Positions 1,129 through 55,600 of a stretch of 64,000 nucleotides of DNA are shown here, piece after piece. Within the stretch, counting starts at the first letter, position 1. Each line of letters begins with the position of its first letter. This DNA comes from Comamonas aquatica NBRC 14918 (lineage in GTDB: Bacteria; Pseudomonadota; Gammaproteobacteria; Burkholderiales; Burkholderiaceae_C), in NCBI RefSeq assembly GCF_000739875.1, contig NZ_BBJR01000024.1, forward strand, positions 1 through 64,000. The letters are read 5' to 3'. The notes beneath the pieces were generated by a model, which saw only the letters and a program-made list of their open reading frames with translations, did not search any database and was not told the DNA's origin. A program made the translations under genes and the position numbers.

Positions 1129-1429
1129 GCCTGAATGCCGCAGCGCGGTCGGTCGTGTGTGCCGCGCGCTGCGCGACTTGGCATATACTGGTCTCGCGCG
1201 CTAAATTTGTTCTTCGCCCCTCTAGCGCACGTCTGACACCTCCGTAGCCCCTTGGCCGTTGGTAGTTCCCTTCTTTGAGAAGCGTGCGACTGTCACTCTC
1301 CCTTCCCGGCGAATCTCTGCAGATCTCTTCTTCGTTCGATCTGCCCAGCCCCTGATCTACCAGGGTCCGCTGTCTCCCTATTTACTCGATGGACATTGCT
1401 CACAAGCAGGGCGTGCCCGTCCGTATGCC
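1129..1429 (+). promoter_or_regulatory. Leader region of the small-protein/infA/RRM block
   Basis: This gap has no supported gene. A TATACT-like -10 element lies near 1183-1189, followed by a long, T- and C-rich transcribed-looking leader of more than 200 nt before the ATG at 1430. The reading frame of the downstream gene stays open through it, but the translation looks non-coding. A long leader would suit a gene controlled by RNA structure or cold. That is inference only. Confidence 0.3.
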
Positions 1430-1648
1430 ATGCTGCAAAAACCTATCAAAGAGCAGGTGGGCAACTACGTTGTTACACCCTTCAGTCACCTCGACGCATC
1501 CGGCCAGTTTGCTGCATCGGTATCTATCCGACGCGGTGTCTATGACCGTGTCTTCCGATTCATTCCGCAGTTCACCAGCGAGAGCCTGGCCAACAGCTAT
1601 GCGCTCGATCAGGCACGCACGATGCTGCTGGCCAACGCACTGAACTAA
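1430..1648 (+). CDS. Small conserved-looking protein, paralogue of 2821-3057
   Basis: A 72-residue protein of unknown function. It shares an arrangement with the 78-residue product of 2821-3057: Y..TP, then ASG, then SIR.G, then the block [10 protein letters not shown], and a C-terminal helix with YA..Q....L. There is no signal peptide, membrane segment or cysteine. The frame stays open upstream to 1259, but the shared region begins close to the ATG at 1430, which was chosen as the start. It lies 31 nt before infA and is probably cotranscribed with it and the following RRM gene. The company of translation and RNA-binding genes suggests an RNA- or ribosome-related role, but no function is assigned. 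Confidence 0.7.
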
Positions 1649-1679
1649 ACCTGTTTATCGCCACTCATCTGGAGGCACC

Positions 1680-1946
1680 TTGGCAAAAGAAGAACTCATT
1701 GAAATGCAAGGTCGGGTGGAAGAAGTTCTGCCCGATACGCGCTTTCGCGTAAAGCTGGACAACGGGCACGAACTGATTGCCTATTCGGGCGGCAAGATGC
1801 GCAAGCATCGGATTCGCGTCTTGGCGGGCGACAAGGTCACTGTCGAGATGTCGCCCTACGACCTGAACAAAGGGCGGGTGACCTTCCGCCACATCGAGAC
1901 GCGGATGAACGCGACCCCCGGTGGTCCCAAGCGTCGTCCCCGTTGA
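1680..1946 (+). CDS. infA: Translation initiation factor IF-1
   Basis: The 88-residue product is a clear S1/OB-fold IF-1. It opens [18 protein letters not shown] and carries [33 protein letters not shown] and a basic tail rich in R and P. IF-1 binds the 30S A site and helps initiation fidelity. The start codon is TTG, placed 5 nt after a GGAGG Shine-Dalgarno at 1671-1675. The tail ([12 protein letters not shown]) is longer than that of the usual 72-residue form. Many betaproteobacteria carry one infA with the ribosomal protein genes and a second elsewhere; the context here (small protein, RRM genes) fits the second copy. Confidence 0.95.
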
Positions 1947-1994
1947 TTTTTGGGCTGTCCTGGCACAAAGGTCCGTCCTTCTTGAAAGTACCCT

Positions 1995-2246
1995 ATGCAA
2001 AACAAACTCTACATCAGTAACTTGGCCTTCTCGATCGACAGCGATGCACTGCGCAAGCTGTTGACCAACTATGGCGTGGTGCTGTCATCCCAGGTCATCT
2101 TGCAGCGTGACACTGGCCGCTCGCGCGGTTTTGCCTTTGTGGAGATGTCCACGGAAGAAGAGGCGCAAGCCGCAGTGCAGGGCTTGAATGGTCAGCCCAC
2201 CGAGGGGCGCGCGCTGAGCGTGGCGATTGCTCGCGATCGCAGCTAA
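1995..2246 (+). CDS. RRM-family RNA-binding protein (no Gly/Arg tail)
   Basis: The 83-residue protein is a single RNA recognition motif. RNP2 is LYISNLAF (residues 4-11) and RNP1 is RGFAFVEM, with a final beta strand ALSVAIARDR. Proteins of this type bind single-stranded RNA and are often cold-induced in bacteria. It lacks the glycine/arginine tail found on its convergent paralogue at 2392-2709. It follows infA after 48 nt with no terminator between them, and a strong hairpin with a T-run begins 23 nt after its stop. Confidence 0.92.
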   Translation: MQNKLYISNLAFSIDSDALRKLLTNYGVVLSSQVILQRDTGRSRGFAFVEMSTEEEAQAAVQGLNGQPTEGRALSVAIARDRS

Positions 2247-2269
2247 AGCACCTGTAGCTACAAGCGCAG

Positions 2270-2304
2270 CCCCCGCGGATGAAAGTCCGCAGGGGGTTTT
2301 CTTT
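2270..2304 (+). terminator. Intrinsic terminator after the first RRM gene
   Basis: The arms are CCCCCGCGGA and TCCGC-A-GGGGG, a 10-bp stem with one bulged A and a 6-nt loop, followed directly by TTTTCTTT. It closes the plus-strand small-protein/infA/RRM unit. Confidence 0.85.
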
Positions 2305-2332
2305 GGGCATTTGATGCTTGTCGGCTGCCAAC

Positions 2333-2365
2333 AAAAAGCCCCTGTCAGCAAGTGCTGGCAGGGGC
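2333..2365 (-). terminator. Intrinsic terminator of the convergent RRM gene
   Basis: A stem of GCCCCTGTCAGC with GCTGGCAGGGGC (12 bp, one G-U wobble) and a 4-nt loop. Read on the minus strand it is followed by five T residues. It lies 27 nt past the stop of the minus-strand RRM gene. Confidence 0.85.
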
Positions 2366-2391
2366 CTTGAGATCTAGAGCCTCAAGAGCTT

Positions 2392-2709
2392 TTAGTAGCG
2401 GTTATTGCCACCGCGGTAACCGCCACCGCCGTTGTTGCTGCGGTAGCCGCCGCCGGATTCTTCGCGGGGGCGTGCAACGTTGACGAGCATGTTGCGGCCA
2501 TTCAGAGGTTGGTCATGCAGGCCTTGGATGGCAGCTTGCGCTTCTTGCTCGGTCGACATTTCAACAAAGCCAAAACCCTTGGAACGGTCGGAATCGCGCT
2601 CCATCATGACCTTGGCAGAGGTCACATTACCGAATTCGGCAAATTGTTGCTCCAGATCGTGGTCGCGAACGTTGTAAGAAAGATTGCCTACGTACAGTTT
2701 GGTTGTCAT
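2392..2709 (-). CDS. RRM-family RNA-binding protein with Gly/Arg/Tyr-rich tail
   Basis: The 105-residue protein has an N-terminal RRM (RNP2 LYVGNLSY, RNP1 KGFGFVEM). A low-complexity tail from about residue 84 carries repeated GGGYR-like units ending GGNNRY. Such tails add non-specific RNA binding and chaperone-like behaviour in cold-inducible RRM proteins. It faces the tail-less RRM gene at 1995-2246, with a terminator for each between them. A paralogue of the small protein at 1430 lies just upstream of it (2821-3057), so the local gene order mirrors the plus-strand arm. Confidence 0.92.
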   Translation of the reverse strand: MTTKLYVGNLSYNVRDHDLEQQFAEFGNVTSAKVMMERDSDRSKGFGFVEMSTEQEAQAAIQGLHDQPLNGRNMLVNVARPREESGGGYRSNNGGGGYRGGNNRY

Positions 2710-2820
2710 GGTGTAACTCTATGAAGTTGGGGTGATCCTGGGAGATGTCCAAGGATCAAAGGGTGCAAAGCGCCCGTGTACGGGTTGGCCTTTGGGTGTG
2801 GAGCGCCGCAAGCTCGGTTG

Positions 2821-3057
2821 TCAGTCGGGCAGGCCGGGCAGGTGCAAATAGCTTTTGCCTTGCTCAATGGCATAGCGAATGGCGGCAGCAGGAGATCGAA
2901 ACAGGGGAATGAAGCGAAACACCCGGTCGTGTGAGCAAGAGCCTTTGCCGCTGCGAATGGAAAGCGGTGCTGTGTAAGAGCCGCTGGCGGTCATTGCGGC
3001 GGCAGGCGTGAGTGCGTAGCGGCCGATGACTTGAGAGATAGCAGGAGAGTGGATCAA
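2821..3057 (-). CDS. Small protein, paralogue of the 72-residue protein at 1430
   Basis: A 78-residue protein of unknown function. It shares [20 protein letters not shown] and YA..Q with the product of 1430-1648. A short insert with GSCSH sits before the DRVFRFIP block. There is no signal peptide or membrane helix. It is upstream of and in line with the minus-strand RRM gene, 111 nt away, so the two may be transcribed together. The repeated pairing of this family with RRM genes is the main clue to its role. Confidence 0.7.
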   Translation of the reverse strand: MIHSPAISQVIGRYALTPAAAMTASGSYTAPLSIRSGKGSCSHDRVFRFIPLFRSPAAAIRYAIEQGKSYLHLPGLPD

Positions 3058-3559
3058 GAGAGACGCGTTGGGTTAGGCAGACGCGCGAATAACAGGCTCA
3101 AAAGCAAGCCGCTTATACGTTTTGGGGTGCGGAAAGTAGGATCCAAGCTGCAGCGGCATGCTTGGTCATTTCTCAATGACAACCAGAAGTCATTGAAAAC
3201 AAGGAGTTGAAAATCGTCTGGTGCGATGTGGGTTGCGCTTGGGGCGCTGCACTTTGGTGTGCTGTATAAGTTGTTGCGTTGCAGCAAATTGGCCGCAACT
3301 ATAACAGTATTCGGTGCAAAGGCATGGCCTTTCTTTTCTTGTGTAGGGTCGCAATGCCCTCAGGGCTCAGGTGTCTGGGTGATGTCAAGTCTCCGTTGCT
3401 GCAAACGGGCACGCTGGCGTGTGGAAACTCGCAGTGCACGATGGCTTGCGCGGAGGTTCGCCATGCAATGCTGTGTGCGAAAGCTATGCCCAGAGACGCG
3501 GGCGGCCCTGCAAATCACGCAGCATCTGTGGGATAGGTGGGCCTGTGCCAGACTACGGC
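3058..3559. other. Gene-free, relatively AT-rich spacer
   Basis: About 500 bp with no supported gene. It is richer in A and T than its surroundings and must contain the promoter of the minus-strand small-protein/RRM pair and that of the plus-strand FemAB-like gene. Open frames here have no domain and atypical composition. No repeat or hairpin of note was seen. Confidence 0.5.
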
Positions 3560-54331: not shown

Positions 54332-54438
54332 ACTGGCAACACCCCCGCGGCGCGCGGGACCCCGAAAGGCCCTGGCAGGCAGGTCCACGGGACATTGCTC
54401 ACTTCCCGGACACCCCGCCGGCAATCGATGGTTGGTGC

Positions 54439-54636
54439 TTTGGCAGGTCTCCTGACTGGCACGTCATCGCGTCGCCCCGCCTTCCCGAATGTGGATTCAG
54501 TGGCGGATGGGGCGGGCTCGTTGCCTACAGTTGCGGGGGCAGTTCCATTCGGCCGCCAGCCCCTGAAGCGGGTGGCGGTCATTGGATTCCCTCATGCGGC
54601 TGGCGGTGGCTGGCGCATGTCCTTGCGGAACCAAAG
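54439..54636 (-). promoter_or_regulatory. Cobalamin riboswitch (minus strand)
   Basis: The conserved pieces occur in order on the minus strand: P1 CTTTGG (54636-54631), GGGAATCC (54591-54584), GCCCCCGCAACTGTAGGC (54540-54523), GCCACTG (54504-54498), GGGAAGGCGGGG (54486-54475), GCCAGTCAGGAGACCTGCC (54461-54443), and the closing CCAAAG (54444-54439). It lies about 150 nt before the binding-protein gene at 54290 and should lower expression of that ABC operon when B12 is plentiful. Confidence 0.93.
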
Positions 54637-54709
54637 TTCGGGTAATGTAGCTGATTTTGTAGCGTCTGGCGCAGGCACCGTCTGCGTGGACACCTGTTTT
54701 CAGCCTGAT

Positions 54710-55213: not shown

Positions 55214-55270
55214 CGCGTGCCGCCCGCGGTCTGCGCCGCGGGGGCGGCAGTCGCTTCTATAATCCACACT

Positions 55271-55463
55271 CCAACAGGAGCCCCGCCGCACCCGCGTGCG
55301 TGGGGTGAAACGGGAAGTCCGGTGACCTCACACCCCTGGTGTGGAGCATTCCGGCGCAGCCCCCGCTGCTGTAAGCCTGACAGACACACTTCGATGCCAC
55401 TGGGTGCCCCCCGGGAAGGCGGTGTGCGCTGTATGACGGCGAGCCAGAATACCGACCTGTTGG
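55271..55463 (+). promoter_or_regulatory. Cobalamin riboswitch (plus strand)
   Basis: A perfect 8-bp P1, CCAACAGG (55271-55278) with CCTGTTGG (55456-55463), encloses the core pieces GGGAAGTCCGGTGA (55312-55325), GCAGCCCCCGCTGCTGTAAG (from 55356), GATGCCACTGGG (55393-55404), GGGAAGGCG (55413-55421) and GAGCCAGAATACCGACCTG (from 55441). It leads the cobO operon, whose first ATG is at 55601. Between them, 55464-55600, lies GC-rich hairpin-forming sequence and the symmetric TTTCCATGGAAA. Confidence 0.96.
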
Positions 55464-55600
55464 CACGCAGTTGTATGCCACGGGGTGTGGGCCGTTTGCT
55501 GACAGGTTCCATCCCGCCTTGGCGGGGCGCCGGCCCGCCGCACACACACACCACCTTCCCGTATGGGCATGCCTTTCCATGGAAATGGCTCGGGGAGAGC

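What the first reader, a model, noticed from the sequence alone, without database searches (positions are those of the whole stretch)
1430..3057. Mirrored small-protein/RRM module around infA
Two paralogous unknown proteins of 72 and 78 residues (shared [17 protein letters not shown] and Y..TP) each lie upstream of an RRM gene, one pair on each strand, facing each other. The plus arm also holds infA. The repeated pairing suggests the small family works with the RRM proteins, perhaps at the ribosome or in cold adaptation. The pairing is seen directly; the function is inference.
Basis: partly seen in the sequence, partly recalled or inferred. Interest (0 to 1): 0.65.

Follow-up and report, generated by a model that had tools for sequence, protein, structure and literature searches.

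The report
Conserved RNA leader on translation operon
Two small sister proteins next to RNA-binding and translation-start genes are real, and the operon of one of them begins with a knotted RNA structure, not matched by the public RNA-family library, that recurs in front of such genes in related bacteria and probably controls them.

Summary
P0001 (1430-1648 +) and P0002 (2821-3057 -) are paralogues (BLASTP E 9e-18, 41%), each upstream of an RRM gene; P0001 also precedes infA. Relatives are under purifying selection. Of 80 family places, 72 have infA, an RRM gene or a cold-shock-domain (CSD) gene on the same strand within 700 bp: 53 directly before infA, 28 with RRM downstream, 23 with CSD. The main partner is thus infA; RRM comes second.

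The more important find is upstream of the plus arm. Window 1198-1313, 8 nt behind a TATACT box, is a conserved pseudoknotted 5' leader RNA: a hairpin whose loop pairs with a segment 95 nt downstream, supported by compensatory changes. Covariance models blind to genes find it ahead of infA and/or RRM units in 21 of 24 and 27 of 29 matches. No Rfam family matches.

The protein model is bbb-alpha, closest to CV_2116 (2KON, Z 8.3). Family starts lack Shine-Dalgarno sites; infA starts have them.

Best reading: a leader-controlled, cold-shock-type translation operon. Temperature sensing is inferred; one in-silico test did not support it.

The parts
1184..1189 (+). -10 box TATACT of the presumed plus-arm promoter, 8 nt before the leader hairpin
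   Evidence: sequence; spacing from the -10-like box to the loop motif is 20-27 nt in the 26 loci measured, but a -10-like box was part of how these loci were chosen; the consensus scan did not list this box
1198..1228 (+). P1 hairpin of the leader RNA (GCGCTA 1198-1203 / TAGCGC 1223-1228); the loop carries TTCGCC 1213-1218
   Evidence: 99.1% of cells paired with compensatory changes in A9; found unaided by RNAalifold; own strands pair better than swapped strands, permutation p <= 5e-5
1231..1237 (+). conserved GTCTGAC segment after P1
   Evidence: mostly near-invariant columns in A9
1265..1290 (+). P3 hairpin region of the leader (less certain; not every pair forms in the window itself)
   Evidence: 74.5% (outer) and 67.5% (inner) of cells paired in A9
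1308..1313 (+). 3' partner GGCGAA of the pseudoknot, pairs with loop 1213-1218
   Evidence: 90.3% of cells paired, 5 of 7 pairs with double changes in A9; found unaided by RNAalifold in A3
1194..1316 (+). leader RNA as matched by covariance model R2 (the window sequence is one of the nine used to build it)
   Evidence: R2 87.5 bits
1430..1648 (+). P0001, small protein of the CV_2116-like family, start without Shine-Dalgarno
1680..1946 (+). infA (IF-1), TTG start with strong Shine-Dalgarno
   Evidence: TIGR00008 102.9 bits; duplex -9.3 kcal/mol
1995..2246 (+). RRM RNA-binding protein, plus arm
   Evidence: PF00076 70.0 bits
2270..2300 (+). terminator-like hairpin with T-tail, presumed end of plus operon
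   Evidence: read from the sequence; not in the automatic list
2333..2365 (-). terminator-like hairpin with T-tail, presumed end of minus operon
   Evidence: read from the sequence; not in the automatic list
2392..2709 (-). RRM RNA-binding protein, minus arm
   Evidence: PF00076 70.5 bits; NF058537 108.8 bits against 100
2821..3057 (-). P0002, paralogue of P0001
3058..3303 (-). stretch between a TATAGT box (3303-3298) and P0002; no match to R1 or R2
   Evidence: sequence; not among the matches

Best explanation
The plus arm is a leader-controlled translation operon: promoter - pseudoknotted 5' leader RNA - small CV_2116-fold protein whose start has no Shine-Dalgarno site - infA - RRM protein - terminator. 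Shown by sequence comparison: the leader is a conserved structured element behind a -10-like box; it recurs with the same set of genes in the window's family and three other families of its order; and it also occurs without the small protein. Inferred: that it is transcribed as the 5' end of the message and acts as a cis-regulator of message stability or translation start that raises this module when translation is slowed, most likely by cold, in the manner of the E. coli cspA leader; and that the small protein, modelled as bbb-alpha and nearest to CV_2116 and then to dsRBD-type domains, is an RNA- or ribosome-binding helper made together with IF-1 and the RRM protein. The minus arm is a second, RRM-only copy of the module whose upstream region does not match the leader models.
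For: Leader: on structure-blind alignments the proposed pairs form in 96.6% of cells in A4 (21 double-change cells, shuffled mean 6.9, 0 of 500 shuffles as high; slid versions at most 54.9%) and 84.7% in A9 (36 against 11.6); A3 and A5 agree. RNAalifold found the pseudoknot helix in A3 and P1 in A4 unaided. In a scan of column pairs of A5 the two are the top-scoring helices (A5 was fitted to P1, not to the pseudoknot). R1 in 200 family genomes: 24 matches in 23 genomes; 15 ahead of family + infA, 3 infA + RRM without the family, 3 RRM without infA, 1 sigma-70 paralogue, 1 small unknown ORF, 1 unassigned. R2 in 53 genus genomes: 29 matches in 21; family member directly behind in 24 (window included), infA without it in 3, neither in 2. 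R1 and R2 partly find each other's loci. Protein: conserved neighbours, purifying selection, model pLDDT 85.5, 2KON Z 8.3. Family starts: duplex with the 16S tail at or below -5 kcal/mol in 8 of 43 operons, infA in 38 of 43. CSD genes adjoin 23 of 80 places.
Against: No expression data at any temperature were seen. Predicted openness around the family start is about the same at 10 C and 37 C (mean unpaired 0.45 and 0.50 over 23 loci; pseudoknots are not modelled there), so a simple thermometer at that start is not supported. None of the R1 or R2 matches examined precedes a CSD gene. Most genomes have no match: R1 23 of 200, R2 9 of 200, under strict filters. The minus arm has no match. The middle pair of the seven-pair pseudoknot helix is unpaired in 26 of 28 rows of A5 and 9 of 10 of A3. 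The number of pair types is not above shuffles in A5 (299 of 500) and only weakly elsewhere. Loci for A3 and A4 were chosen partly by the conserved letters of the pseudoknot strands. RNA binding of the protein rests on fold resemblance only; no Foldseek match reaches E 0.001, and unrelated proteins such as a beta-lactamase reach Z 5.1.
Confidence: 0.5

Rival explanations
1. The leader is an autoregulatory binding site: a product of the operon (RRM protein, IF-1 or the small protein) binds the pseudoknot and limits its own synthesis.
For: 20 of 24 R1 matches precede a unit with an RRM gene, and the leader persists when the small protein or infA is missing. A recorded parallel by name exists: the Chlorobi-RRM motif in the table of PMC2864571 (passage seen).
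Against: Several leader units show no RRM match in the fetched DNA (L148, L166, L167, L168, L171, L174), and one leads a sigma-70 paralogue, so no single product is always present.
Confidence: 0.25
2. The leader is a ribosome-recruiting element that replaces the missing Shine-Dalgarno site of the first gene.
For: Family starts have no Shine-Dalgarno above shuffled level (8 of 43; shuffled 16%) while infA in the same operons has (38 of 43) (starts were assigned by rule, not by experiment).
Against: The matched structure ends more than 100 nt before the start codon in the window, and the leader also precedes infA or RRM genes without the small protein.
Confidence: 0.12
3. The small protein is a phage-derived structural protein, as proposed for CV_2116, and its place beside infA is incidental.
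For: Closest fold is CV_2116, whose gene lies among phage tail genes (PMC3397530: first of three parts of the text and two passages read).
Against: 72 of 80 places are beside infA, RRM or CSD genes. Two divergent members without such neighbours exist in this genome, so the wider family may have more than one role.
Confidence: 0.03
4. The leader conservation reflects a DNA element (operator or promoter) and not an RNA.
For: It starts right behind a -10-like box and P1 is an inverted repeat.
Against: The pseudoknot partners lie 95 nt apart in the window and change together across loci (CG/UA and others); an operator would be expected to conserve letters and not pairing (inference).
Confidence: 0.04

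Closest known systems
CV_2116 (PDB 2KON; NCBIfam NF046097)
   Same: Predicted fold over 68 residues, Z 8.3, rmsd 2.8; weak profile matches in 25 of 64 members, best E 1.6e-6
   Different: Window members are not over the curated cut-off (P0001 no match, P0002 12.7 against 58 bits); gene context is translation, not phage tail
DUF6566 (PF20204)
   Same: Weak match over most of the length of P0002 and in 15 of 64 members, best E 4.9e-5
   Different: P0002 scores 12.1 against a cut-off of 26.7; P0001 none
E. coli cspA leader (thermosensor)
   Same: Long structured message region of a cold-shock gene with two conformations at 37 and 10 C (PMC4166951 passage); that its cold form holds a pseudoknot is recalled
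   Different: No Rfam match of the leader here; no temperature data; not found ahead of a CSD gene in the matches examined
Chlorobi-RRM RNA motif (RF01697)
   Same: Candidate cis-regulatory RNA whose name ties it to RRM genes (PMC2864571 table)
   Different: Chlorobi in that table; no match in the Rfam scans here
Burkholderiales-1 candidate motif
   Same: Same order of bacteria (PMC2864571 table)
   Different: Shown there without an Rfam accession and marked uncertain; its alignment was not available, so identity could not be tested

Membership tests
IF-1 (infA) | TIGR00008 over its cut-off | tested here: met
   102.9 against 61.15 bits
RRM_1 (PF00076) | profile over gathering score, both arms | tested here: met
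   70.0 and 70.5 against 20.7 bits
NCBIfam Rbp_regulator (NF058537) | score over 100 bits | tested here: inconclusive
   minus arm 108.8 (met), plus arm 94.6 (not met)
CV_2116 domain (NF046097) | score over 58 bits | tested here: not met
   P0002 12.7 bits, P0001 no match
CV_2116 fold | structure match above unrelated rows over most of the domain | tested here: met
   2KON Z 8.3, next row 7.0; Foldseek E 0.036, probability 1.00; only just above the Z 7-8 that the tool calls typical for models without a clear match, and a model, not a solved structure
DUF6566 (PF20204) | score over 26.7 bits | tested here: not met
   P0002 12.1 bits, P0001 no match
dsRBD | alpha-beta-beta-beta-alpha order (recalled) | tested here: not met
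   model has strands then one helix and no first helix
dsRBD-like fold | structural similarity to dsRBDs | tested here: inconclusive
   entry 9cpa_h (DHX29 43S complex) Z 7.0 and several dsRBD or Dicer-type entries at Z 5.0-6.3, mixed with unrelated rows; the tool says such Z may be a common arrangement
Rfam families, incl. Chlorobi-RRM and any cspA leader family | match at gathering score | tested here: not met
   leader not matched in window and 20 loci, nor at E up to 10 in window 1150-3400 or up to 1 in six loci
RNA thermosensor | temperature-dependent structure or output | tested here: inconclusive
   little difference in predicted openness of the start; pseudoknot not modelled, no experiment
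Burkholderiales-1 motif | match to its alignment | not testable with these tools
   no Rfam accession in the PMC2864571 table

The most novel reading that the evidence does not exclude
One pseudoknotted leader RNA, not matched by Rfam, coordinates a dispersed programme in Burkholderiales that rebuilds translation under stress: an extra IF-1, RRM proteins, a dsRBD-like small protein started without Shine-Dalgarno and, in some genomes, a sigma-70 paralogue, acting as a new class of cold-sensing or factor-sensing riboregulator.
Probability: 0.3. Interest if true: 0.8.

Novelty: new member of a known kind. Interest (0 to 1): 0.62.

Why it matters
Conserved cis-regulatory RNAs usually mark a regulated process. 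This one is defined well enough to test: a short 5' leader with two compensated helices, recurring ahead of a translation initiation factor and RNA-binding proteins. It offers a direct handle on how a large bacterial order may adjust translation initiation, and gives a gene context and a predicted fold to a small protein family whose window members no Pfam or NCBIfam model names over its cut-off.

Tried and rejected
Rejected: that the frames are chance (paralogy, selection in relatives, neighbours). Rejected: DEAD-box helicase as a shown partner; a text search for 'DEAD' tagged L029 (not checked) and L126, where it hit TSDEADK in a sigma-70 paralogue. Rejected: the minus arm carrying the same leader; R1 and R2 do not match it. 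A hairpin with a possible loop partner exists there but was not tested by covariation.

Led nowhere or dropped: automatic search for leaders by pairing alone and by weighted anchors over 1.2 kb gave many false places, so sequence anchors near the start were used. Those anchors include the loop motif, the GTCTGAC segment, the pseudoknot 3' segment and a -10-like box, with mismatches allowed; I fixed the marks by hand for 27 loci, one of which (L091) failed on its -10 string and was dropped, leaving 26. The loci were thus chosen partly by the pseudoknot letters; P1 arms were not anchors, though pairing searches had been seen before. A2 (24 rows) put P1 out of register between two groups and was not used for counts. 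A3 and A4 hold 10 and 11 of the 26; L016, L018, L056, L075 and L004 are in neither. A4 keeps two misaligned rows (L010, L012). R2 was built from nine of the A4 rows (A6). For A9, 34 leaders were reduced to 22 at 90% identity; L164, L175, L005 (identical to L148), L014 and the unplaced loci above were not put in. Two partial matches (L132 and the second L130) are in the A5 pair counts (30 rows) and left out of the column scan (28 rows). A1 holds 64 of the 80 family proteins; most of those left out have long or uncertain starts. Measures weaker than the rest: pairs with a double change were reached by 28, 3, 15 and 6 of 500 shuffles in A3, A4, A5 and A9. PDB sequence searches gave nothing convincing. 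The listings of ten paper searches showed no description of this leader, and for the family only the CV_2116 paper; only the best 4-20 titles of each were seen (15 of 474), and most subscription papers are not held. One survey of 224 motifs was not held.

Full report
Check of the observation. P0001 and P0002 are clear paralogues (E 9e-18). Between the arms the sequence shows one terminator-like hairpin for each direction, by eye. Fourteen chosen pairs of relatives give pooled pS 0.375 and pN 0.101; twelve have dN/dS of 0.05-0.22, two are higher at 0.46 and 0.79.

Where the window comes from.

The family. With P0001 as query, 69 of 150 genomes of the same family have a match; with a 64-row profile, 16 of 250 genomes sampled over the order and 3 of 369 over the class, all three in the window's own family. 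The tools' first look limits sensitivity, so these are lower bounds. Among 80 distinct places, 72 have infA, RRM or CSD on the same strand within 700 bp: 53 directly before infA, 28 with RRM downstream, 23 with CSD, 8 with none. The own genome has five members; the two divergent ones lack such neighbours.

The fold. The best model (three sequences, pLDDT 85.5, pTM 0.71) is three strands after a short one, then one helix. Top structural match is CV_2116, 2KON, Z 8.3 over 68 residues, Foldseek E 0.036; next come a chain of a DHX29 43S complex (Z 7.0) and dsRBD or Dicer-type entries from Z 6.3 down, with unrelated rows among them from Z 5.1. Profile membership in CV_2116 or DUF6566 is not met by the window proteins, though 25 and 15 of 64 relatives match weakly. 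RNA binding is therefore a lead, not a result.

The leader RNA. Reading upstream of the plus arm and of its relatives showed a repeated order: a TATACT-like box, a hairpin P1 with changing arms, a loop motif like GCTCGCC, GTCTGAC, a variable stretch, GTCAC, and GGCGAGC, which is complementary to the loop. In the window these are 1184-1189, 1198-1228, 1213-1218, 1231-1237 and, for the last, 1308-1313. P1 arms pair better with their own partner than with partners from other loci (mean score 17.7 against 12.6, 26 loci, permutation p at most 5e-5). In structure-blind alignments both helices are supported: A4 96.6% of cells and 21 double-change cells (shuffled 6.9), A3 84.2% and 11 (3.4), A9 84.7% and 36 (11.6; with two further hairpins included), and A5, fitted to P1 only, 83.3% and 42 (12.3; with one further hairpin). 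No shuffle of 500 reached them on cells paired, double-change cells or covariation score, and slid versions reach at most 54.9%. Pairs with a double change were reached by 28, 3, 15 and 6 of 500 shuffles in A3, A4, A5 and A9, and the count of pair types by 102, 36, 299 and 95. RNAalifold found P1 in A4 and A9 and the pseudoknot helix in A3 without being told. Further hairpins are less certain (67-75% of cells).

Where the leader occurs. Models of P1 plus sequence were searched without regard to genes. R1 (ten sequences) gave 24 matches in 23 of 200 family genomes; seven are loci used in the model. Behind them stand: family + infA in 15, infA + RRM without the family in 3, RRM without infA in 3, a sigma-70 paralogue in 1, a small unknown protein in 1, unassigned 1. 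R2 (nine sequences, window included) gave 9 matches in 9 of 200 family genomes, of which eight built the model and the ninth, L142, precedes family-infA-RRM. In 53 genomes of the genus it gave 29 matches in 21, two of them (window, L148) with sequences used in the model; a family member follows within about 270 bases in 24, infA without it in 3, nothing recognisable nearby in 2, one of which (L175) may be false. Six of these units are family-RRM without a detected infA, the arrangement of the window's minus arm. In the order sample R1 gave 5 of 250, three of them used in the model. R2 also finds group-two loci at E 4e-4 to 0.023, and R1 finds L007 and part of L016 at about 0.02, so the two groups are likely one leader family.

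Translation start. Family starts pair with the 16S tail no better than shuffled sequence (median -2.0 kcal/mol; 8 of 43 at or below -5; shuffled 16%), while infA starts in the same operons do (median -7.4; 38 of 43). Starts were assigned by rule. In the rows printed by that call infA often starts with GTG or TTG.

How it probably works. The anatomy fits a leader that sets stability or translation of an operon for IF-1, an RRM protein and a small helper. The company of CSD genes (23 of 80) and the general knowledge that IF-1, CspA-type and some RRM proteins rise in the cold in other bacteria (recalled) make cold the first guess. One computed test, openness of the first start at 10 and 37 C, showed little difference (0.45 and 0.50, 23 loci). 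Autoregulation by a product of the operon is the main rival.

What is known. No Rfam family matches the leader. The 2010 survey PMC2864571 lists Chlorobi-RRM and an uncertain Burkholderiales-1 without Rfam accession (table passage); the latter could not be compared. Two later surveys hold none of the terms infA, cold shock or Burkholderia in the main text (PMC8632094, PMC11109978; term searches only). Ten accepted text searches, listed under Tried and rejected, showed no description of the leader in the titles and abstracts listed. Verdict: a well-supported cis-regulatory RNA candidate on a conserved translation module, new member of a known kind.

Noticed in passing
window 54425-54650 (-) and 55259-55474 (+): Two divergent cobalamin riboswitches about 600 bases apart.
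   Followed up: no
L126, L130 (behind the leader): A sigma-70 (RpoD-like) paralogue follows the leader directly in one genome and follows leader-RRM in another (named by eye).
   Followed up: partly
L129 behind the leader, and L079 upstream of the family gene: A small unknown protein with an ALNWLEWHGG-LRLT motif lies behind the leader in one genome and between a CSD gene and the family gene in another.
   Followed up: no
L023, L033, L047, L076 upstream of family-infA-CSD: A different conserved stretch, with a GATC-N-GTTGATCTC hairpin, precedes these operons.
   Followed up: no
L024, L034, L035, L038, L040-L042, L044-L046, L051, just before the family start: A conserved GCGCACACCTC or close copy stands in front of the start codon, mostly in operons with CSD upstream; it resembles the anti-Shine-Dalgarno and not the Shine-Dalgarno.
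   Followed up: no
L058, L059, L066, L088 upstream of family-RRM: These RRM-only units share a third kind of upstream sequence with GAGCTGCAGCC.
   Followed up: no
G852 C32 and G857 C1: Family-infA-RRM and family-RRM modules, each with the leader, lie on one strand 3.0 and 4.5 kb apart, unlike the convergent pair in the window.
   Followed up: partly
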